64,000 nucleotides of DNA from Flavobacterium tistrianum (GTDB lineage: Bacteria > Bacteroidota > Bacteroidia > Flavobacteriales > Flavobacteriaceae): assembly GCF_003254545.1 (NCBI RefSeq), contig NZ_QJRH01000066.1:1-64000 (forward strand), written 5' to 3'. How positions within the stretch are numbered: position 1 is the stretch's first letter; each line of letters starts with the position of its first letter. The position numbers and the translations under genes are program-made. Shown one piece after another: positions 3,629 through 12,800 of this stretch. The notes under the pieces are model-generated. The model was not told the DNA's origin. It made no database searches and saw only the letters and a list, made by a program, of their open reading frames with translations.

Positions 3629-4501
3629 CTAGCTGATTATAATCTTATGTTCGTGACGGTATTGCGAAGCGCTTTTACCTGTATATTGTTTAAACGATTT
3701 ACTGAAGTGGCTGAAATTATTAAAACCGCTTTCGTAACAAACTTCATTAATACTCATTGGCTGTTCTGCCAAAAGTTTAGACGCGTGTACCAAACGATAT
3801 TCATTTACAAACTCAGTAAATGTTTTGTTTGAAATCTTCTTGAAATAACGACAGAAAGATGGTGTAGTCATACTTACTAGACTTGAAACCTCATCTATAG
3901 AAATAGATTCCTGAAAATGATCTTTCACAAAATTGAAAACCACATTCATACGATCATTGTCTTGTGTTTGCAATTCCATCGAAAATCCGTCGGCGTTTAA
4001 AATGGTATATTCCTCAGCTGACTCCAATTCGTCTAAAACAGTCAACAGCGTCATAAGTCTCTGAAATGGCGGTTCGTTTTCCATCATTTCAATTTTCTTT
4101 CCAATACGTTTTTTCGTTTCGCCGCCAAAAGCGATTCCGCCTTTAGCTTGTTTTAATATATTCTGAACTTTTTTCATTTCGGGAGCAACAAAAAAATCGC
4201 TTCCTAAAAATTCAGGTTTTATATGAATAACAGTTTCATTTGTATTTCCTGTTTGTTCATTTGTGAATCCGCAATGTGGCAAATTAGCTCCTATTAAAAG
4301 TAAACTACCATTGGTATAATAAGAAACATGGCTTCCTATTTGTCTTTTTCCAGCCCCACCATTTATATAGACCAACTCAATTTCTGGATGATAGTGCCAT
4401 AAATGAGCTTTGCTATTGGTCTTTTCGGCGTGTTTAGTGTAGGTAAAAGAACTTCCGTATGAGTTAGTTATCACTTCTAGAGCTGGGGCAATAGTTTTCA
4501 T
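3629..4501 (-). CDS. AraC-family transcriptional regulator with cupin sensor domain
   Basis: 290 residues. The N-terminal half has the cupin-like pattern WHYHPEIELVYINGG near residues 36-50, expected to bind a small effector. The C-terminal 100 residues carry two helix-turn-helix motifs, with the typical second-HTH signature GFNNFSHFSKSFKQYTGKSA near 262-281. A TAAATTTG -7 box lies on the minus strand at 4526-4533. Just upstream of it is a diverged copy (4558-4595) of the box found before the three small secreted genes to the right, so this regulator is a reasonable candidate to control that array and itself. That link is inference from position. Confidence 0.92.
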   Translation of the reverse strand: MKTIAPALEVITNSYGSSFTYTKHAEKTNSKAHLWHYHPEIELVYINGGAGKRQIGSHVSYYTNGSLLLIGANLPHCGFTNEQTGNTNETVIHIKPEFLGSDFFVAPEMKKVQNILKQAKGGIAFGGETKKRIGKKIEMMENEPPFQRLMTLLTVLDELESAEEYTILNADGFSMELQTQDNDRMNVVFNFVKDHFQESISIDEVSSLVSMTTPSFCRYFKKISNKTFTEFVNEYRLVHASKLLAEQPMSINEVCYESGFNNFSHFSKSFKQYTGKSASQYRHEHKIIIS

Positions 4502-4525
4502 GATAATTTATTTAAAAAATAATAG

Positions 4526-4533
4526 CAAATTTA
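4526..4533 (-). promoter_or_regulatory. -7 promoter element of the AraC gene
   Basis: Reads TAAATTTG on the minus strand, matching the Bacteroidota TAnnTTTG consensus, 25 bp before the start codon. A TTG is present about 21 bp further upstream (4555). Confidence 0.55.
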
Positions 4534-4557
4534 ACAAAATCACCTAAAAAAATTCAA

Positions 4558-4595
4558 ATTTTAACCTACAACGGTTTCGTAAATGCGAATTTTAC
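4558..4595 (+). promoter_or_regulatory. Diverged copy of the shared upstream box, at the AraC promoter
   Basis: Contains AACGGTTTCGTAAATG, identical to the core of the three boxes at 4820, 5845 and 6749 and in the same orientation, but diverging after GAAT. It sits directly upstream of the araC-like -7/-33 region. The remaining gap to 4820 is AT-rich with no gene seen. Confidence 0.7.
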
Positions 4596-4819
4596 ATTAA
4601 AATAATATACTTAGCACTGAAAAATTTATATCAAAATCGGCTTTTTTTTAGGGTCTTATTTTTTTTCATCACTTTTTTTCTATTTATCCCATTTAAAACT
4701 TGATTTTATACAGATTTAGTAAAAATTGTAAGAAAGATGGAAAATTTAAGAAGTATTCAGTTTTTAAAAAACTTTGAATAAAAACAATCAAATTAACAAA
4801 AACACAACATTAAAGTCAA

Positions 4820-4877
4820 ATTTTAACATATAACGGTTTCGTAAATGAGAATATAGCATAGAAATTGGAAAATACAG
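4820..4877 (+). promoter_or_regulatory. Conserved 58-bp upstream box, copy 1
   Basis: Nearly identical to the boxes at 5845-5902 and 6749-6806. The core AACGGTTTCGTAAATGAGAA starts at 4832, exactly 72 bp before the -7 element at 4904. A fixed distance in three otherwise diverged spacers points to a regulator-binding site. Confidence 0.75.
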
Positions 4878-4903
4878 ATGTTAAAATACCACACATGCTG
4901 CTA

Positions 4904-4911
4904 TAACTTTG
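4904..4911 (+). promoter_or_regulatory. -7 promoter element, small secreted gene 1
   Basis: TAACTTTG, a full match to TAnnTTTG, 41 bp before the start codon at 4952. Confidence 0.65.
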
Positions 4912-4951
4912 CCTCAGAGAAATGAACGAAAAAAATTTAATACTATAGAAT

Positions 4952-5317
4952 ATGAAAAAGATAATGAAATTAAGTTTAGTATGTGCAGTACTTCTAACAG
5001 GAATGAGTACTTATGCAATTGATGGAAATGAAGTGTTAAATCTTCATGTATTAAAAGGAAATGGCAAGGTAATTGCATTTGGAATTAATCAATTACAAAA
5101 AGCAGTTATTAGTATATCTGATACAAATGGTAATGTAATCTATACAGAGAATGCTTCTGGTAAAGACGGAATATTAAGAACTTTCAGTTTGGAAGAATTT
5201 CCTCAAGGAAAATATATTTTAGAAGTTGCCGACAGCTTCAAAAAAGTAAAATACGATATTACTGTTAATGCAAACAGTTCTGTTTTGTCTTCAAAAGGAA
5301 CAGTTTCTCTTAACTAA
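4952..5317 (+). CDS. Small secreted protein, tandem family member 1 (DUF3244 / sorting-domain-like beta-sandwich)
   Basis: 121 residues. Signal peptide of about 22 residues ending STYA, followed by a mature domain of about 95 residues. The shared family pattern is IDGN..(L/F)NLHV.(K)(A/G)NGK(V/M/L)I(T/A)F, then an I.D..G.(V/L)IY(T/S)E strand, then ASGKDGILRTFSLE and FP.G.Y.LEV with a lysine-rich last strand. This resembles the short Ig-like DUF3244 proteins and also the stand-alone form of a T9SS C-terminal sorting domain; neither could be tested by search. First of four paralogs (4952, 5977, 6880, 7894). Function unknown. Confidence 0.85.
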   Translation: MKKIMKLSLVCAVLLTGMSTYAIDGNEVLNLHVLKGNGKVIAFGINQLQKAVISISDTNGNVIYTENASGKDGILRTFSLEEFPQGKYILEVADSFKKVKYDITVNANSSVLSSKGTVSLN

Positions 5318-5429
5318 GAAAATATTAAGGTTAAGTGCAATTCTTCACGGCACTTAAAACTTTATACTCTAATACAGTATAAAAAGTGAGGTTAGATAGT
5401 TAGTAAGTTAAAAACTTTCAAAAGTTTTA

Positions 5430-5466
5430 AAAACAGCTCTTTGTGGTTACTGAGCTGTTTTTTTTT
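5430..5466 (+). terminator. Terminator of small secreted gene 1
   Basis: AAACAGCTC / GAGCTGTTT hairpin followed by a T-run. The approximately 70 bp before it are almost identical to those before the terminator of gene 2, showing that the duplicated unit includes the 3' region. Confidence 0.85.
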
Positions 5467-5499
5467 GCTCTTTACTTTTTGAGTTATAAAATTTTACCG

Positions 5500-5700
5500 C
5501 AATTTTTTTACCGCAAAGTTCACAAAGTTTTTTTTTCTAAGGTGATGTATAAAATACAAAGTTCGCAAAGCTTTATCTTAATATAGCTTTGCAAACTTTT
5601 TTATTCGATAAAATTTACTCAAATAAACCTTTGTGTCCCAATAGCTATCGGGATTGCGTGACCTTTTTGTCTTTGCGCTACAATACACAATCTAAATAAA
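5500..5700. repeat. Dispersed intergenic repeat (AACCGCAAAG / GCAAAG type with CCGATAGCTATCGGG-like palindrome)
   Basis: Strings such as ACCGCAAAGTTCACAAAG, an inverted half around 5580-5600, and an imperfect copy of the palindrome CCCGATAGCTATCGGG near 5637. Related copies are at 7385-7590, 23200-23340, 23560-23690 and 24540-24640. No gene is seen in 5467-5844. Confidence 0.6.
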
Positions 5701-5844
5701 AACTTAGAATCTCAACATCTTAGAAACTTAGCATCTTCTCTTCCTACATTTTTAAAGAAATCTTTATATCAATGTAAATTAAAAATTACCAAAAAAGTTA
5801 AAAAATAATAACCTAATCAAGAAAAACGATAAAAAATAGATTAA

Positions 5845-5902
5845 ATTTTAACATATAACGGTTTCGTAAATGAGAATATAGCATCGAAATTAGCAAATAT
5901 AG
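5845..5902 (+). promoter_or_regulatory. Conserved 58-bp upstream box, copy 2
   Basis: Core AACGGTTTCGTAAATGAGAA begins at 5857, exactly 72 bp before the -7 element at 5929. Only the last third differs from copy 1. Confidence 0.75.
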
Positions 5903-5928
5903 TATTGATTTTTTACTTACAACTGAAG

Positions 5929-5936
5929 TAATTTAG
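5929..5936 (+). promoter_or_regulatory. -7 promoter element, small secreted gene 2
   Basis: TAATTTAG, one mismatch from TAnnTTTG, 41 bp before the start codon at 5977. The same sequence is present for gene 3 and for the L,D-transpeptidase at 16456. Confidence 0.55.
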
Positions 5937-5976
5937 CATTAGAGAATTAGAACTATTAATTTAAAAACTAAATACC

Positions 5977-6381
5977 ATGAAAAAGATTATTAGATTGAGT
6001 TTAGTAGCTGCGTTGCTTTTCACAGGAATTAGCACATATGCAATTGATGGAACAGCAGATTTTAATCTGCACGTTATTAAAGCTAATGGGAAAATGATCA
6101 CGTTTGGTCTTAACCAAACACAAAAAGCCTACTTAGCTATTTATGACAAAGACGGATCTCTAATTTATTCTGAAACTGCTTCAGGTAAAGATGGAATTTT
6201 AAGAACTTTCAGTCTAGAAGAATTTCCAGAAGGAACTTACTTCTTGGAAGTAGAAAACGATACAAAAAAAGCAAAATACGAAATCACAATAACTGACGAT
6301 TCTTCTGTTTTATCTAAAAATGCTGTCTCTTCAGTTTACAAAACAGGTTTTGCTAAAAATACAAGTGTGGCAACACGCTAA
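5977..6381 (+). CDS. Small secreted protein, tandem family member 2
   Basis: 134 residues, with signal peptide ending STYA. The mature domain is closest to member 3, sharing long identical stretches (YSETASGKDGILRTFSLE) and the same C-terminal tail pattern SSVYK.GFAKN.SVA.R, which member 1 lacks. No cysteine occurs in the mature part. It has its own box, promoter and terminator, so it is an independent transcription unit in a tandem array with a repeat step of about 0.9-1.0 kb. Function unknown; probably periplasmic or secreted. Confidence 0.85.
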   Translation: MKKIIRLSLVAALLFTGISTYAIDGTADFNLHVIKANGKMITFGLNQTQKAYLAIYDKDGSLIYSETASGKDGILRTFSLEEFPEGTYFLEVENDTKKAKYEITITDDSSVLSKNAVSSVYKTGFAKNTSVATR

Positions 6382-6454
6382 AAAAGTTTATGCTTTCATA
6401 AAGTATAAAGTGAGGTTAGATAGTTAGTAAGTTTAAAAACTTTCAAAAGTTTTA

Positions 6455-6490
6455 AAAACAGCTCTTTGTGGTTATTGAGCTGTTTTTTTT
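6455..6490 (+). terminator. Terminator of small secreted gene 2
   Basis: AAACAGCTC / GAGCTGTTT hairpin plus T-run, sequence-equivalent to the terminator at 5430. Confidence 0.85.
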
Positions 6491-6748
6491 GTTTTTTACT
6501 TAAGGTTCTGAGACGCTAAGATGCTTAGGCTCTAAAGTTTTTGAAAGATTTTGAGATTCTAAGCCTTTTTTGTCTGCAGTATATTATGGACCAATATTTA
6601 AACGTCAAGGATAAACTTAGAACCTTAGCATCTTAGTAGCTTAACATCTCTTTTTTGTAAACAAATTCTTAACCTATTGTAAATTCAAAATTAAGCAAAA
6701 CATTAAAAAATAATAACTGAATTAATACAAACACTGAAAATAATTCAC

Positions 6749-6806
6749 ATTTTAACCTATAACGGTTTCGTAAATGAGAATATAGCATAGAAATAGGAAA
6801 ATACAG
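6749..6806 (+). promoter_or_regulatory. Conserved 58-bp upstream box, copy 3
   Basis: Core AACGGTTTCGTAAATGAGAA begins at 6761, exactly 72 bp before the -7 element TAATTTAG at 6833-6840. The stretch 6491-6748 before it is an AT-rich spacer with GACGCTAAGATGC-like dispersed repeat fragments and no gene. Confidence 0.75.
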
Positions 6807-6879
6807 TTGCACTTTTTCATGCAATACATAAGTAATTTAGCATCAGAGAATTAGAACTAATAATTTAAAACTAAGTACC

Positions 6880-7281
6880 ATGAAAAAGATTGCAAAATTG
6901 AGTTTAGTAGCAGCGTTGCTTTTCACAGGAATAAGCACTTACGCAATTGATGGAAATGGAGAATTTAATCTTCATGTATTAAAAGCTAATGGAAAACTGA
7001 TCACTTTCGCACTTAACAAAGTACAGAAAGCTAATTTAGCTATTTATGACAATGATGGAACTTTAATCTATTCTGAAACTGCTTCAGGTAAAGATGGAAT
7101 TTTAAGAACTTTCAGTTTAGAGCAATTTCCTGAGGGAACTTATTACTTAGAAGTAGAAGACAATGTAAAAAAAGCAAAATACGAAATTACAATAGATGAT
7201 AATGCATCATTATCTAGAACTGCAATTTCTTCAGTTTACAAAGCTGGTTTTGCTAAAAATTCAAGTGTTGCTGCTCGCTAA
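6880..7281 (+). CDS. Small secreted protein, tandem family member 3
   Basis: 133 residues, with signal peptide ending STYA and mature part starting IDGNGEFNLHV. Very similar to member 2 through the whole length, including the tail ending SVAAR. The promoter element is TAATTTAG at 6833, 40 bp upstream of the start, and the terminator follows at 7344. The strong similarity of flanks as well as coding region indicates a recent tandem duplication. Function unknown. Confidence 0.85.
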   Translation: MKKIAKLSLVAALLFTGISTYAIDGNGEFNLHVLKANGKLITFALNKVQKANLAIYDNDGTLIYSETASGKDGILRTFSLEQFPEGTYYLEVEDNVKKAKYEITIDDNASLSRTAISSVYKAGFAKNSSVAAR

Positions 7282-7343
7282 GGATTTATACGCCCACAAA
7301 AGGTATAAATTGAGGTTAGAAAATTTAAAAATTACGTTTTAAG

Positions 7344-7379
7344 AAACAGCTCTTTGTGGTTATAGGAGCTGTTTTTTTT
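7344..7379 (+). terminator. Terminator of small secreted gene 3
   Basis: AAACAGCTC / GAGCTGTTT hairpin with T-run, third copy of this terminator. A half copy (GGAGCTGTTTTTTT) recurs at about 7614-7626. Confidence 0.8.
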
Positions 7380-7449
7380 GTTTTTACTGCAAAGATTTTT
7401 TTACCACAAAGACGCTAAGGTCACACAAAGTTCGCAAAGTTTTTTTTAT

Positions 7450-7509
7450 CTCGCAAAGTCGCTAAGACGCGAAGTTTTTAAATTCTTTGCGTCTTAGCGA
7501 CTTTGCGAG
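7450..7509. repeat. Palindromic dispersed repeat, 25-bp arms
   Basis: Arms CTCGCAAAGTCGCTAAGACG... and complement, near perfect, with a 10-nt loop. It is followed by a CCCGATAGCTATCGGG palindrome at 7552-7567. The 7380-7893 spacer holds only these repeats and the promoter of member 4 (TAGTTTTG near 7846). Confidence 0.7.
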
Positions 7510-7893
7510 CAATTTGCATCATTCTCAAAAAAACTTAGCGTGCTTTGCGTTCCCGATAGCTATCGGGATTGCGCACTTTGCGGTTAAATTTATATGGCAT
7601 TTTTGCTTATGGAGCTGTTTTTTTGTTTAAGATTTAGATCCAAATCTTGAAACAGATAAATTTTCTGAAAATTATTCTTATTAATTACAACTGTTTGATT
7701 TTTAAGCCTTAAAAAATATTCTGAAAAAACAATCCGTAAGCCCAGTAATTACGTACATAATTCAAACAAAATACAGAAATGATTACAATTCAACAACTTA
7801 AGCATTTAAAAATATCCATTTATTGCTAAAAATTAAATTTGTATTTGTAGTTTTGCGCGTTCCACATTTAGTAATTAACAATTTAAAAAAAAC

Positions 7894-8280
7894 ATGACAA
7901 AATTTACCAAAGCTGGTTTAGTTGCTGCCTTTTTTTTAGCGACTGTGTTTACCTACGCCATTGATGGAAAAGGTGATTACATTTTAAATATCAGAACAGG
8001 AAACGGAAAAGTAGTTAGCTTTACTTTAGACACTGTCGAAAATGCATCTTTCTCTATCTACGACGAGAATCACAATTTACTTTATGCGGGAGAATCTGCA
8101 GCAGACAAATTAGAGGTTTCTAAAACAATTAGTTTAGAAAGTTTTCCTGCTGGAACTTATGTTCTTGAAGTGAAAGCAAACGACAAAGTTGCAAAACACG
8201 AAATTAAAGTTGTTGCTAAAAAAGTAAAGGCAGTAAAAATGGACGAATCTGTTAATCATAGTCCATCTTTCCGTCGTTAA
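7894..8280 (+). CDS. Small secreted protein, diverged tandem family member 4
   Basis: 128 residues. Signal peptide ending TYA, then IDGKGDYILNIRTGNGKVV, so the family start is kept. The ASGKDGILRTF block is replaced by SAADKLEVSKTIS, and the C-terminus is lysine-rich. No copy of the 58-bp box is present upstream; the -7 element is TAGTTTTG instead. This suggests that member 4 is the oldest paralog and is not under the control shared by members 1-3. Its terminator differs too (8303-8336). Function unknown. Confidence 0.82.
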   Translation: MTKFTKAGLVAAFFLATVFTYAIDGKGDYILNIRTGNGKVVSFTLDTVENASFSIYDENHNLLYAGESAADKLEVSKTISLESFPAGTYVLEVKANDKVAKHEIKVVAKKVKAVKMDESVNHSPSFRR

Positions 8281-8302
8281 TTTTTTGCCCCCTAAGAAAT
8301 TA

Positions 8303-8999: not shown

Positions 9000-9608
9000 T
9001 TATAAATTAAAATCAATCATATCTCGTAGAGGAAGACGACCATCATTCCATTCTAAGGTTATAAATTTAGAAGTATGCCCTTTCATTTCTTCAAAACCAT
9101 CAAATAAAATGGTAGATCCCCCATTCCTTACAGTTTCTTCTACTAGCTTAAACGTTAACAAAGCTCCATTAGAATCCAAACCCACTACATCAAACACAAT
9201 ATCTTTTGTTTTTGAAAACGTTTTATATAAACTTAACAGCTTTCGCTGAGTTCCTCCCAGTTTATTCATTCTAGTTTCTCGAGTAACATATTTGTCTTCA
9301 AACAATTTTACAAGAAAAGGATTTGTAAGATCTGCATCTTTTTTAAGAAATCTGTTAACGGTTGAAGGGAAAAAAATATCTCTAAATTTTGACTCTTTAA
9401 AAAAGTCAACAAAAGACATTTTTCTATTTATAGTAACATTTTCATGTTTTATAACCCCACAAAAAATATCTTTAAGATACATTTCGGTATCATAAAAATG
9501 TGCTCCGTTATATAAATACAAAACAATTATTTCGCCTTCATACAAAGTAAAAGGCGGTATATAATAAGTATCTGTCTTAATTCCTTTATTTTCTAATACT
9601 ATTTTCAA
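9000..9608 (-). CDS. Degenerate ABC-ATPase-like protein lacking Walker motifs
   Basis: 202 residues, no signal peptide. The layout follows an ABC nucleotide-binding domain of about 200 residues. There is an N-terminal beta-region with LYEGEIIVLYLYNGA where the Walker A loop should be; no GxxGxGK(S/T) is present. LGGTQRKLLSLYKTF sits where the LSGGQ signature would be, followed by DIVFDVVGLDSNG at the Walker B/D-loop position with no DE pair, and STILFDGFEEMKG.....FITLEWNDGRL at the H-loop and end. It probably cannot hydrolyse ATP. It is downstream of the XRE gene on the same strand, behind a terminator. Assignment is by pattern only; a wholly different fold is possible. Confidence 0.6.
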   Translation of the reverse strand: MKIVLENKGIKTDTYYIPPFTLYEGEIIVLYLYNGAHFYDTEMYLKDIFCGVIKHENVTINRKMSFVDFFKESKFRDIFFPSTVNRFLKKDADLTNPFLVKLFEDKYVTRETRMNKLGGTQRKLLSLYKTFSKTKDIVFDVVGLDSNGALLTFKLVEETVRNGGSTILFDGFEEMKGHTSKFITLEWNDGRLPLRDMIDFNL

Positions 9609-9632
9609 TAATTGGAAAGTTTTAAAAATGAG

Positions 9633-9660
9633 AAAAGCACCCGCCTTGGCAGATGCTTTT
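9633..9660 (-). terminator. Terminator between the XRE gene and the ABC-like gene
   Basis: 13-bp stem with two wobble pairs (AAAAGCATCTGCC / GGCGGGTGCTTTT on the minus strand) followed by a T-rich run. It separates the two minus-strand genes, so the ABC-like gene needs read-through or its own start. Confidence 0.7.
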
Positions 9661-9676
9661 TATTTCTATTCAATTA

Positions 9677-10090
9677 CTATTTCTCTTTTAGCAATTTTTG
9701 TAAATATTCAATCTTATCTTTTTCTGCCTGAAGCAAACGCTCATAAAGCTTTTTATTTTCTTCTACCGTTTCCATTAATTTATCTAATGGATTGAAAGTG
9801 CAAGTATTATAATGATTAAAATTATTCCCCGAAACAGCATCATTAAAAGTGTTGAAATAATTTATCATACCGTCTTCTGAAAAATTCTTAATTGCTTCCA
9901 CCGTTACACCAAGCGCTTTCGCTATTTCAGAAAGTCTATCTTCTTCTATAGTTTCGCTGTTTTCAATAGTAGATATTGTTTGCTGGCTTATTCCCAAAGC
10001 CTGCGCCAAAGCTTCCTGTTTCATGTCACGAAGTTCACGAATACGGCTTATTTTTCGCCCTATATGATTTGGTTTTGTTAGTGTGCTCAT
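9677..10090 (-). CDS. XRE-family regulator with C-terminal coiled coil
   Basis: 137 residues. A Cro/C1-type HTH occupies residues 10-65 (EALAQALGISQQTISTIEN). Then comes a linker rich in Asn and Phe, and a coiled coil (ETVEENKKLYERLLQAEKD) near 107-126 suggesting dimerisation. The -7 box TATCTTTG on the minus strand (10095-10102) ends only four bases before the ATG, so the mRNA is probably leaderless. Divergent from the small protein at 10276. A similar HTH/small-protein divergent pair is at 37.2-37.9 kb. Likely an autoregulator of the pair. Confidence 0.85.
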   Translation of the reverse strand: MSTLTKPNHIGRKISRIRELRDMKQEALAQALGISQQTISTIENSETIEEDRLSEIAKALGVTVEAIKNFSEDGMINYFNTFNDAVSGNNFNHYNTCTFNPLDKLMETVEENKKLYERLLQAEKDKIEYLQKLLKEK

Positions 10091-10094
10091 AATT

Positions 10095-10102
10095 CAAAGA
10101 TA
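10095..10102 (-). promoter_or_regulatory. -7 promoter element of the XRE gene (leaderless)
   Basis: TATCTTTG on the minus strand, four bases from the start codon. The predicted transcription start coincides with the ATG. Confidence 0.5.
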
Positions 10103-10275
10103 ATAATTAAGTATGAAAACTTCCACGGGTAACAAACTTATTTAGACAAGTATGATACCAGTAGAATCGGTTTGGTAAAATACAATCTATTTCTTCCTTC
10201 GCCGAATCAAACAAAAGTACAATTTTTCTTATACATTTTTATAAAAGTCAAATTGCAAATCAAAATATACGCCTT

Positions 10276-10590
10276 ATGGAAACGAACGAAACAGAAAAGC
10301 TACAAAAACTGCAAAAATTAACCGCTAAGTATTTTACAACGCTAAAACCAACCAATGAAGCCAATTCTTATACCGCACAATTCAAAGTGGTCAATTATTT
10401 AGAACTCGGCTGTCTTATTACCGATTTACTAAAATTATGTATTCTCGCACTTGACAATGATATGCATAACTTTTCCAAAAAAGATAATAGTTCTGCTATT
10501 AATGTTTCTCTAGTTTTAGAAACTATTCTGCATTTGTTCCCTATGGATGAAATGGAATTTTTGGGGTTTGTTGGGGAGATGGCTGAATAG
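10276..10590 (+). CDS. Small helical protein, paired with XRE gene (paralog at 37184)
   Basis: 104 residues, no signal peptide or membrane segment of full length. Predominantly helical pattern with the motif YTAQFKVVNYLELGCLITDLLK in the middle and an acidic end (LFPMDEMEFLGFVGEM). The protein at 37184-37519 shares its plan: a KLKP-N-SYT start, Y.EL..(L)(I/V)(T/S)DLLKA.I(L)AL, then LLPEDEMELLDDL. Both lie divergent to an HTH gene. No known family is recognised. A partner or regulator of the HTH protein is one possibility. Confidence 0.75.
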   Translation: METNETEKLQKLQKLTAKYFTTLKPTNEANSYTAQFKVVNYLELGCLITDLLKLCILALDNDMHNFSKKDNSSAINVSLVLETILHLFPMDEMEFLGFVGEMAE

Positions 10591-10616
10591 TTATATTTCA
10601 ACCCAATTAGCACACA

Positions 10617-10722
10617 ATCTTGTCATTTCGACGTAAGGAGAAATCTTCGCAAGTAGCTCCGCAACGAGAATCCAATCTTTGTAGAGTTTCTTACAAAGAT
10701 TTCCTTTCGCTGGCGCGAGCGG
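10617..10722. repeat. Dispersed palindromic repeat (TCATTTCGACG...GAGAAATC family)
   Basis: Starts TGTCATTTCGACGTAAGGAG and continues with GAGAAATCTTCGCAAGTAGC, then an inverted half with ACAAAGATTTC. A second copy is at 38612-38722 in fuller inverted form. It fills the space between the converging small-protein and reverse-transcriptase genes. Confidence 0.7.
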
Positions 10723-10738
10723 GGAATTATTATTTAAA

Positions 10739-12289
10739 CTATTTAAGTAGTTTGTCTATTTTGTTCCAATGTCTTTTAGTTTGGCTTTTTATTTTATTTG
10801 AAAATTTTATAGCACGTGCTTTATAGGCATATGACAAAAAATTCCCCCAATCAAAGTGTGTTGATATTTCAAAATATTTTTTTGCATGATTATAAATATA
10901 CTTTCTTCTTCGAGCAGCTCCCTTATAGGTAAATCTATTTAGCAATCTGCGTTTAAACAGTTCTCCTGGATATTTTGAACTGGAAGAGCTTGAAAAATGC
11001 TTTGCCCTTTTAATTGTTCGTTTCATTTTTCTATAAAATCCAGATAAACTAGCGGATTTTATTTTTACATCAGTGCCATCGAATTCTAGTCCTAAATAAA
11101 TAAAGTTTTTATCAAAATTAATTAACTTTTCAAATTCTTGACCACATTTTAAATGATTACCATCTCTATGAAAGTGAAATATCTGAGTTTTTTTATTTTG
11201 AATTTTTAAATCGATTTCTTGAATCTTTTTATCAAAAAGTGAAATGACTTCTTGTTTTTTATCTAACGGACATACTACAACCATATCATCAGAGTATCTC
11301 TTGTAAATACCGTCAATATCTTTAATGTACTCGTTAACTTCAAAATCAAAATCTAACATGTAAATATTTGCCAAAATTGAACTGATAGGTGATCCTTGCG
11401 GGATTCCAAAGTCTTTTATTCTAACTATACCATTTTCATCTCTAACATGTTTAGACTTTTTGACAAGTTTTTTATTTTTTAAAATAAATTCTTCTTTTGT
11501 ACAAAATGAAACAGCATCAGATTTCTTTAAATATTTAATTTTTGAGACCCTCTTTCTTGTTATAGCTTCTTTGTGATTTTTAGTTGTTTTAACAAAAATA
11601 TTATTTTGAAATTCTTTAAAAATATCAACCAAATCAATATAGCTAAATCTTGTTATATTCTTAAAAACATTGAAATGATCTTTTGGCATCGGATTTTCTA
11701 AATTACCAATAATTTCATTCCATTTTGTTCTTAGCTTTTGATGATTTAGATTATCGAAAAATCCAGTAATATCAAAGGCAATAACTATAAAATGATTTGG
11801 AGGATAATCTTTTATTGATTTAAAAACATCTACCGCAAAATCAATATTACATTTATTCTTCTTTGAATTTTCTTTAAATGGAATCTTCCTGTATGCAGTA
11901 ATTACCTGAGATAATTTTTTTTCCAAAATTACTTTCTCATAATTTTTGGTTAAGAGTTCCGCATAATAACTATAAATTAGAGAATCGAGATGTCCAGCAT
12001 AAAACAGTTCGCGCTCTTTAGTACTTGCAACACGAGTTTTTTTCTTTCCATTTACATCAGTATATTTTAGTATTCCAGTTTTTTTTGAATAAACCTTTCT
12101 GAATTTTCTGACTTTACTTTTTTTATGAATAAAAGGAAGAAAAGCATGTTGAGAAATTCTTTCAGGATTGGTAACATAATCTTCAATCCAAACAACACGA
12201 TCTTTAGCCTTTAAAGGAAAACCAATATGAGGATATCGTTTTAATTTGAACCAATCTTTGTTTTTTTCTACTGGTATATTTACAGCCAT
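10739..12289 (-). CDS. Reverse transcriptase (defence-associated/unknown-group type)
   Basis: 516 residues. RT motifs in order: FDITGFFDN at 172-180 (first catalytic Asp173), GIPQGSPISSILANIYM at 295-311, YSDD at 332-335 (Asp334, Asp335; Ser instead of the common Ala), and the grip FIYLGLEFDG at 396-405. A Lys/Arg-rich insertion of about 100 residues separates the first motif from GIPQG, and the C-terminal 110 residues are very basic, as in an RNA-binding thumb. It lacks the maturase or endonuclease domain of group II introns and the NAxxH/VTG features of retron RTs. It fits the stand-alone antiviral (DRT/UG) or Abi-type RTs; subgroup not assignable here. The start codon lies 12 nt after the closing stem of the structured element at 12302-12659. 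Confidence 0.88.
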   Translation of the reverse strand: MAVNIPVEKNKDWFKLKRYPHIGFPLKAKDRVVWIEDYVTNPERISQHAFLPFIHKKSKVRKFRKVYSKKTGILKYTDVNGKKKTRVASTKERELFYAGHLDSLIYSYYAELLTKNYEKVILEKKLSQVITAYRKIPFKENSKKNKCNIDFAVDVFKSIKDYPPNHFIVIAFDITGFFDNLNHQKLRTKWNEIIGNLENPMPKDHFNVFKNITRFSYIDLVDIFKEFQNNIFVKTTKNHKEAITRKRVSKIKYLKKSDAVSFCTKEEFILKNKKLVKKSKHVRDENGIVRIKDFGIPQGSPISSILANIYMLDFDFEVNEYIKDIDGIYKRYSDDMVVVCPLDKKQEVISLFDKKIQEIDLKIQNKKTQIFHFHRDGNHLKCGQEFEKLINFDKNFIYLGLEFDGTDVKIKSASLSGFYRKMKRTIKRAKHFSSSSSSKYPGELFKRRLLNRFTYKGAARRRKYIYNHAKKYFEISTHFDWGNFLSYAYKARAIKFSNKIKSQTKRHWNKIDKLLK

Positions 12290-12301
12290 ATTAATTTTTA
12301 A

Positions 12302-12659
12302 AGTGAAAAAAGAGAAGGTGACTACGAAGCATTGCTTTTACAAATTTTATTATGTGAAAAATACATGCGTTATTGATGTCAGAACATCGCTCCTTCAAGT
12401 CGGGTAATTATTGTTGTAACTTTACAAATTAAATTAAATCTAATTCTATGAAAGAACCAGTCATCTATAAGTACATTCCAGTCATATTATCCCTAAGCAA
12501 TCTGTTATTAACAGCGCTGGGAATAACAGATTGCTTAGGAGAAATTTATTCAATATTCTCTTGCATATCTGAAATTAGACCTCCTCAACAGCGTTTAATG
12601 TTGAGTTAGATTTACTCTATACCATAAAACGTATTTTTCGGCTCCTTCTCTTATTCACT
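12302..12659 (-). ncRNA. Candidate structured RNA partner of the reverse transcriptase
   Basis: The 358-bp interval upstream of the RT gene is bounded by complementary ends. On the minus strand AGTGAATAAGAGAAGG (12659-12644) pairs with CCTTCTCTTTTTTCACT (12318-12302): 6 + 8 bp around a small internal loop. Inside are an 18-bp perfect hairpin (12492-12509 with 12522-12539, 12-nt loop), a 7-bp hairpin (12584-12590 with 12599-12605) and a 5-bp hairpin (12375-12379 with 12384-12388). The octamer GCTCCTTC occurs at both 12389 and 12641. A closed, structured RNA directly before an RT start codon is the arrangement of retron and DRT non-coding RNAs. Exact ends and direction are inferred. Confidence 0.6.
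12448..12609 (+). CDS. Possible 53-residue hydrophobic peptide antisense to the RNA element
   Basis: ATG at 12448, stop TAG at 12607. The product begins MKEPVIYKYIPVILSLSNLL and has one hydrophobic stretch. A TAACTTTA -7-like sequence lies about 30 bp upstream. The ORF runs straight through the 18-bp hairpin, so its openness may be chance in a structured element. Low confidence. Confidence 0.2.
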   Translation: MKEPVIYKYIPVILSLSNLLLTALGITDCLGEIYSIFSCISEIRPPQQRLMLS

Positions 12660-12742
12660 ATTATTTATTCTAATTTTTCAAATTAATTAAATATTTTTCA
12701 AATTAAATTACGGTTTTCCTCATTTTGAAATATTTTTACATA

Positions 12743-12776
12743 CAAAAAAACCTCCCATTCACATGAGAGGTTTTTC
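12743..12776 (-). terminator. Terminator of icmF
   Basis: AAAAACCTC / GAGGTTTTT hairpin about 25 bp past the icmF stop, T-run on the minus strand. The region 12660-12742 upstream of the RT element is strongly AT-rich and should hold the promoter for the RNA/RT unit. Confidence 0.75.
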
Positions 12777-12800
12777 CATAAATCTATAAAAACATTAAGT

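What the first reader, a model, noticed from the sequence alone, without database searches (positions are those of the whole stretch)
10739..12659. Reverse transcriptase with a closed-stem, hairpin-rich RNA element directly upstream: candidate RT/ncRNA defence system
Seen: a 516-residue RT with complete catalytic motifs (Asp173, YSDD 332-335) and no endonuclease, maturase or integrase domain. Its start codon is 12 nt after a 358-bp element whose ends pair (6 + 8 bp), and which contains an 18-bp perfect hairpin plus two smaller ones. The trinucleotide AGC directly follows the 5' arm, and the octamer GAAGGAGC (minus strand) occurs twice, 252 bp apart. Known: retrons and some DRT systems (DRT2, DRT9) have a structured RNA just before the RT gene that the enzyme copies. 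Inference: this is a two-part RNA + RT antiviral system of a type I cannot match exactly, since the retron NAxxH/VTG features are absent.
Basis: partly seen in the sequence, partly recalled or inferred. Interest (0 to 1): 0.88.

Follow-up and report, generated by a model that had tools for sequence, protein, structure and literature searches.

The report
DRT2 defence system, template frame broken
This is a bacterial anti-phage system of a known type, in which an enzyme is thought to copy a structured RNA over and over to write a hidden toxic gene; its relatives carry the hidden gene with their own phylum's kind of promoter, and this particular copy looks knocked out of frame by a five-base duplication.

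Summary
In detail: the RT and the closed-stem RNA element are there, and the element folds far better than shuffles (z -5.7). The RT is Drt2 (PADLOC 455 bits, next other family 72; best Foldseek hit KpnDRT2 9c0i, E 5e-36).

New is how the published DRT2 logic appears in this Bacteroidota clade. In 27 of 33 relatives, a template jump between two matching 4-7-nt motifs joins TTG and TAnnTTT[G/A] at exactly 20 bp, like the flavobacterial -33/-7 promoter, on the strand antisense to the ncRNA. All 29 such units are multiples of 3 with a stop-free frame; none is out of frame. Two loci fetched later both fit. A Photobacterium control gave TTGACA-N17-TATAAT; two other non-Bacteroidota controls were unclear.

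The window has the same jump and promoter, but a 5-bp tandem duplication makes its unit 167 nt. Its predicted Neo stops after 56 residues, so this copy is probably crippled although the RT is intact.

Verdict: a DRT2 variant with a phylum-specific promoter.

The parts
10739..12289 (-). Drt2 reverse transcriptase, 516 aa
12302..12659 (-). ncRNA element (5' end at the high coordinate); ends set by the closing stem and conservation, no transcript data
12644..12659 (-). 5' arm of the closing stem
12302..12318 (-). 3' arm of the closing stem
12629..12639 (-). 5' arm of a second long-range helix (GAAAAATACGT), pairs with about 12356-12370
   Evidence: both-side changes in four of its pairs, (columns 29-39 with 329-340)
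12356..12370 (-). 3' arm of the second long-range helix
12584..12605 (-). hairpin CTCAACA..TGTTGAG, the likely 5' handle
12573..12577 (-). jump motif 1 (TAATT), 5' end of the template
12406..12410 (-). jump motif 2 (TAATT), just 3' of the template
12411..12577 (+). predicted repeat unit in neo sense, 167 nt in the window (162 in L031)
12560..12563 (+). -33 element (CTTG), upstream of the -7 element only after the jump
   Evidence: placed from the unit printed
12417..12424 (+). -7 element (TAACTTTA), 20 bp from the -33 element across the junction
12435..12439 (+). 5-bp tandem duplication absent from five close relatives; exact placement within the repeat is arbitrary
12448..12577 (+). predicted Neo from its ATG to the junction (43 codons); continues 13 codons into the next repeat, then a stop
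12492..12539 (-). 18-bp perfect hairpin inside the template
12302..12405 (-). 3' scaffold

Best explanation
A DRT2 (UG2) defence system of a Bacteroidota clade. Inferred mechanism, from published KpnDRT2 work plus the anatomy here: the RT binds the upstream ncRNA, copies the template between the 5' handle and the 3' scaffold, and at the template's 5' end jumps back to an identical short motif at its 3' end, making tandem cDNA. Each junction puts a -33 element from one repeat 20 bp upstream of a -7 element in the next, which makes a promoter for the Bacteroidota primary sigma factor. After second-strand synthesis a repetitive mRNA, antisense to the ncRNA, is transcribed and translated into the hydrophobic, stop-less protein Neo, which arrests the infected cell. 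Shown by sequence: RT family, conserved and covarying RNA, matching jump motifs, 20-bp spacing, multiple-of-3 units and a stop-free frame across relatives. Inferred: ncRNA transcription, cDNA synthesis, promoter use, toxicity, defence. [quoted passage not shown] the promoter is kept, but Neo is predicted to end after 56 residues, so this copy is probably weak or inactive.
For: Drt2 by profile, PDB sequence, fold and tree. In 33 relatives spacing 20 has 29 in-frame and 0 out-of-frame solutions, in 27 loci and 13 of 19 RT clusters; no other spacing from 5 to 35 exceeds 10 loci or 5 clusters. Rule found on 18 loci (17 at spacing 20); of 15 loci fetched later 10 fit unchanged; of two more, both fit. 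A promoter-blind column scan picks the same pair: 17 of 22 loci, 0 out of frame. Register control. Positive control in Photobacterium. -33/-7 consensus TTTG/TANNTTTG from PMC6847099, passages. Window duplication.
Against: Codon-level selection on Neo is weak: pN 0.145, pS 0.190, differences at codon positions 121/100/126 over 15 non-independent pairs. Neo hydrophobicity (0.88) is no higher than a codon-position-shuffled control (0.97). L085 has no solution, L066 and L003 fit poorly, L083 only with a 3-nt motif. In the L020 group a longer match, CAATTTC, gives another in-frame unit without the promoter spacing. The spacing rule shows no spike in clade B. Psychrobacter gave no clean control solution and Desulfovibrio an ambiguous one. 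PMC6847099 notes that the -33 motif is much less evident than the -7. In the window the frame is broken, so its own neo fails the rule. No expression or phage data.
Confidence: 0.78

Rival explanations
1. DRT2 by RT, but the Bacteroidota template makes a product that acts as DNA or RNA rather than as a protein; the open antisense frame comes from composition and hairpins.
For: Weak codon-level selection; hydrophobicity equal to a shuffled control; 13 of 96 sense frames of the units are also stop-free.
Against: All 29 units at spacing 20 are multiples of 3 and stop-free; about 2.9 of 32 units would be stop-free by Markov resampling; promoter and frame lie on the same strand in each.
Confidence: 0.12
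2. The window's copy is fully active: the 5-bp duplication is an assembly error, or the RT uses a junction other than the one predicted.
For: Draft assembly in 73 contigs; intact RT differing from L031 at 19 of 516 residues; one genome per species, so no second strain was seen.
Against: No in-frame stop-free jump at spacings 17-23 in the window with motifs of 3 nt or more; the five close relatives lack the duplication.
Confidence: 0.25
3. Not DRT2 but a retron, DRT9-like system or group II intron derivative.
For: Shared RT core only.
Against: Families other than Drt2 score at most 72 bits against 455; group II model 75 against a cut-off of 300; best DRT9 structure E 1.5e-10 against 5e-36 for DRT2.
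Confidence: 0.02

Closest known systems
KpnDRT2 (Klebsiella pneumoniae DRT2/UG2; PMC12039810, PMC11100668; PDB 9c0i)
   Same: RT family and fold; ncRNA directly upstream; variable template between a 5' handle and a 3' scaffold; two matching jump motifs; multiple-of-3 unit; stop-less antisense frame; promoter completed at the junction (the last two features are read from relatives for the frame, and from the window and relatives for the promoter).
   Different: Bacteroidota -33/-7 promoter at 20 bp instead of TTGACA-N17-TATAAT; jump motif varies by lineage (ATACC, ATTC, TATTTC, AATT) instead of ACA; units mostly 129-162 nt instead of 120; RT 516 aa instead of 425; RNA about 358 nt with 5'-3' long-range helices instead of 280 nt. 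The window's own unit is 167 nt and out of frame.
DRT9 and DRT10 (PMC12483538, start of abstract in a search listing; PMC12632851, passages)
   Same: RT plus ncRNA template, repetitive cDNA.
   Different: DRT9 makes poly-dA, DRT10 short tandem repeats, protein-primed; the DRT9 fold is much further from the window RT.
Retrons
   Same: RT with a structured upstream RNA.
   Different: Lineage differs; no sign of an msDNA-type product was sought or seen.

Membership tests
DRT2 (UG2), by lineage and architecture | RT belongs to the Drt2 family by profile, fold and tree | tested here: met
   PADLOC 455 and 318 bits; 9c0i E 5e-36, TM-score by target length 0.84; Drt2 rows apart from 10 other RTs, 92/90, with long-branch warnings
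DRT2 (UG2), by lineage and architecture | Catalytic Asp and YxDD; RT domain only | tested here: met
DRT2 (UG2), by lineage and architecture | Conserved structured ncRNA directly upstream | tested here: met
DRT2 (UG2), by lineage and architecture | Pseudoknotted 3' domain and covalent ncRNA-primed start | not tested
   no pseudoknot search or primer mapping done
NCBIfam NF041746 Drt2 label | Score above the curated cut-off (390 bits); a naming threshold, not a biological feature | tested here: not met
   357.9 bits
Neo-synthesising DRT2 (functional definition) | Two matching motifs flank the template | tested here: met
   TAATT/TAATT in the window
Neo-synthesising DRT2 (functional definition) | Promoter completed across the junction | tested here: met
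   CTTG-N20-TAACTTTA in the window; activity not tested
Neo-synthesising DRT2 (functional definition) | Unit length a multiple of 3 with a stop-free antisense frame | tested here: not met
   window unit 167 nt, stop after 56 residues; met in 27 of 33 relatives at spacing 20 and in 2 of 2 later loci
Neo-synthesising DRT2 (functional definition) | Phage-triggered cDNA, Neo toxicity, defence | not testable with these tools
   needs experiments
Retron | RT of a retron lineage | tested here: not met
   best retron model 49 bits against Drt2 455
Group II intron maturase | RT/maturase score above cut-off | tested here: not met
   TIGR04416 75 against 300 bits

The most novel reading that the evidence does not exclude
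Gene synthesis by template jumping has been re-tuned to a phylum. Bacteroidota DRT2s build neo genes under the phylum's own primary-sigma promoter, whose two halves lie in the wrong order at the locus and meet only when the RT joins one repeat to the next at 20 bp. The jump motif can change between lineages (ATACC, ATTC, TATTTC, AATT; in two further clades GTA(A) and ATTTA) provided that both copies change together. The window is a natural loss-of-frame variant that keeps enzyme, RNA and promoter.
Probability: 0.72. Interest if true: 0.65.

Novelty: new variant of a known kind. Interest (0 to 1): 0.57.

Why it matters
Tang et al. (PMC11100668, section read) found Neo annotation more challenging in divergent DRT2 clades and left alternative mechanisms open; Wilkinson et al. 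analysed the 42 homologs nearest KpnDRT2 (PMC12039810, methods section read). The rule here gives concrete, falsifiable junctions and Neo sequences for a Bacteroidota clade, suggests that E. coli assays could miss them because the promoter differs (inference), and offers the window as a natural frame mutant. In the held library no paper holds both DRT2 and Bacteroidetes or Bacteroidota; one review holds DRT2 and Flavobacterium once each (listing only). Papers outside that library were not searched.

Tried and rejected
GAAGGAGC as the jump repeat: no stop-free antisense frame over 252 nt, 5' copy not conserved. TAATTT at 141 nt as the jump in the closest group: frame open, but the -7 element then falls outside the unit. 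CAATTTC (147/141 nt) in the L020 group: longer match and in frame, but no 20-bp promoter except one accidental case (L047); it stays a possible second register. Viral contigs: 5 pattern matches, no relative. Rfam: nothing at gathering thresholds in the window; best match in the element E 0.89, nos_TCE. Codon-selection test weak; hydrophobicity not above its control. 20-bp rule in clade B: no spike. Clades B and C by column scan: in-frame units found, but several loci also have out-of-frame matches within a few nt. Covariance model of the 3' scaffold: low sensitivity, see full report. Rows dropped before counts: duplicates or non-Drt2 loci L001, L002, L004-L015 and L046. The window was left out of the 33-locus tally as the case under test; it would add two out-of-frame solutions at spacing 20 (167 and 137 nt).

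Full report
WHAT IS THERE. The minus strand carries a 516-residue RT (10739-12289) preceded, 12 nt away, by a 358-nt element (12302-12659) whose ends pair and which holds an 18-bp perfect hairpin. The element folds at -93.6 kcal/mol against -67.1 (sd 4.67) for shuffles, z -5.67, 0 of 100 as good. The octamer repeat exists, but I found no role for it.

THE RT IS DRT2. PADLOC Drt2 455 bits, the next family other than Drt2 72. NCBIfam Drt2 358 bits, under its cut-off of 390. phmmer against PDB sequences: KpnDRT2 183 bits. An AlphaFold2 model (pLDDT 88, pTM 0.85) has KpnDRT2 9c0i as best Foldseek hit (E 5e-36, TM-score by target length 0.84); DRT9 follows at 1.5e-10. In a 58-row tree the window groups with L031, L028 and L027 (100/100), and the 48 Drt2 rows lie apart from ten other flavobacterial RTs (92/90, below the tool's starred level, with long-branch warnings); my clade A is not one side of a branch there (2 changes). 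Drt2 was found in 41 of 398 genus genomes searched.

THE RNA IS CONSERVED. Upstream sequences of five relatives at 67.5-96% RT identity align throughout the element, and more distant relatives keep its parts. Closing stem: native arms pair at -19.3 kcal/mol against -12.2 (sd 3.7) for swapped arms; 9 of 16 cluster representatives beat every swap, 4 are beaten by one, 3 by three to five, with misplaced or shifted arm windows in L027, L083, L021, L025 and L084. In one sub-clade a position of this stem reads T-A, C-G, A-T and G-C in different species; this is by eye, where L022's arm is shifted by one column. RNAalifold's outer helix is in a different register and is not counted as support. A second long-range helix (four pairs with both-side changes) and the 5' handle hairpin (three) are supported there. 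A covariance model of the 3' scaffold, built on 10 loci and searched over 38 sources (window in the model), finds the right place in 6 of 22 clade-A loci outside the model, with weak E-values (0.035-0.64), misses 16, gives one wrong place (0.87), and has no hit in 15 other sources.

THE TEMPLATE AND THE JUMP. Published KpnDRT2 copies a 120-nt template, jumps between two ACA motifs, and makes antisense, in-frame, stop-less repeats whose junction forms a sigma-70 promoter (PMC12039810, main text and discussion read; PMC11100668, three result sections and most legends read). I searched for the same logic without fixing the motif. In relatives, a short match between a site after the 5' handle and a site before the 3' scaffold gives a stop-free antisense frame and joins NTTG to TAnnTTT[G/A] at 20 bp. 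The Bacteroidota primary-sigma promoter is TTTG/TANNTTTG, with the -33 motif much the weaker in F. johnsoniae (PMC6847099, passages).

TESTS OF THE RULE. Discovery: 17 of 18 clade-A loci besides the window at spacing 20, L003 at 19. Loci fetched afterwards: 10 of 15 fit unchanged. Of the other five, L060 and L069 fit at 20 bp with TATATTGT and TATATTGC, which match an alternative flavobacterial motif TAnnTTGY (spacing counted by eye; motif from PMC9723704, passages); L083 fits with a 3-nt motif, L066 poorly, L085 not at all. Two more fresh loci both fit. Over 33 loci and spacings 5-35, spacing 20 gives 29 in-frame and 0 out-of-frame solutions, in 27 loci and 13 of 19 RT clusters; no other spacing exceeds 10 loci or 5 clusters. 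A promoter-blind column scan on 22 of these loci picks the same pair (17 in frame, 0 out). Sliding the register by 1-6 nt leaves at most 2 of 13 matches of 4 nt or more, against 13 of 13 unslid; the 13 were chosen for having a match, so only the contrast counts. Swapping motif ends between clusters still gives such matches in 51 of 156, since lineages share motifs by descent. Markov resampling expects 2.9 of 32 stop-free units. Positive control: the sigma-70 version of the scan on a Photobacterium drt2 returns TTGACA-N17-TATAAT, 111 nt, in frame, as its best solution; Psychrobacter gave nothing clean and Desulfovibrio two equal solutions, one out of frame.

LIMITS. Codon-level selection on Neo is weak, and its hydrophobicity is what codon-position composition gives. 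What is conserved is the frame and the absence of stops, more than the protein. Clades B and C give in-frame stop-free units with other motifs (mostly GTA(A), 11 of 14 loci, 183-192 nt; mostly ATTTA, 8 of 9 loci, 135-150 nt). Clade B shows no 20-bp spike, and clade C has no consistent 20-bp solution; clade D is unsolved. Priming, pseudoknot, trigger and toxicity were not tested.

THE WINDOW'S OWN COPY. It has the same jump motif (TAATT) and the same 20-bp spacing, but a 5-bp tandem duplication (about 12435-12439), absent from the five close relatives, makes the unit 167 nt. The predicted Neo starts at 12448, runs 43 codons to the junction and stops after 13 more. No other jump at spacings 17-23 gives an in-frame stop-free unit. 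The RT differs from L031's at 19 of 516 residues and is open. I read this as a recent loss of frame; an assembly error cannot be excluded.

SURROUNDINGS. The locus lies just past the 3' end of icmF. In relatives the place next to icmF holds other cargo: a clade-B Drt2 in the opposite orientation (G015), a PD-T7-1-like defence gene (G004, 345 bits), T6SS Hcp/VgrG/Tle1-like genes (G006) and a tyrosine integrase (G008). That fits a variable slot that often carries conflict genes; I looked at 8 relatives besides G086, which has the same Drt2 as the window.

VERDICT. A known kind (DRT2) in a variant whose template, promoter and RNA architecture suit Bacteroidota, with a window copy that is probably out of frame.

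Noticed in passing
window 9600-12800; L111-L114: The slot next to the icmF 3' end holds different cargo in relatives: clade-B Drt2 (G015), PD-T7-1-like gene (G004), T6SS Hcp/VgrG/Tle1-like genes (G006), integrase (G008).
   Followed up: partly
window 4500-8300: Tandem array of similar small ORFs (4952-5317, 5977-6381, 6880-7281, 7894-8280); two that were scanned carry T9SS sorting-type domains, and the array is self-similar in comparison with relatives.
   Followed up: no
L060 and L069, upstream of the RT: Their predicted -7 elements (TATATTGT, TATATTGC) match the alternative flavobacterial motif TAnnTTGY reported in PMC9723704, so some neo genes may answer to another sigma factor.
   Followed up: partly
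L023-L041 and L071-L082 (clade B); L045, L050-L057 (clade C): Two further flavobacterial Drt2 clades have different RNAs and jump motifs but also in-frame, stop-free antisense units.
   Followed up: partly
G262 contig 1, 2008785-2010289: A Drt2 gene split into two overlapping matches with stops, apparently broken.
   Followed up: no
CP103976.1, MT837010.1, MT839204.1: Drt2-like RTs (30-32% identity) in three phage records without annotation.
   Followed up: no
window 12492-12539: The 18-bp hairpin lies inside the template, so the predicted Neo is partly encoded by an inverted repeat; L029 and L035 keep a hairpin with changed sequence, more distant relatives lack it.
   Followed up: no
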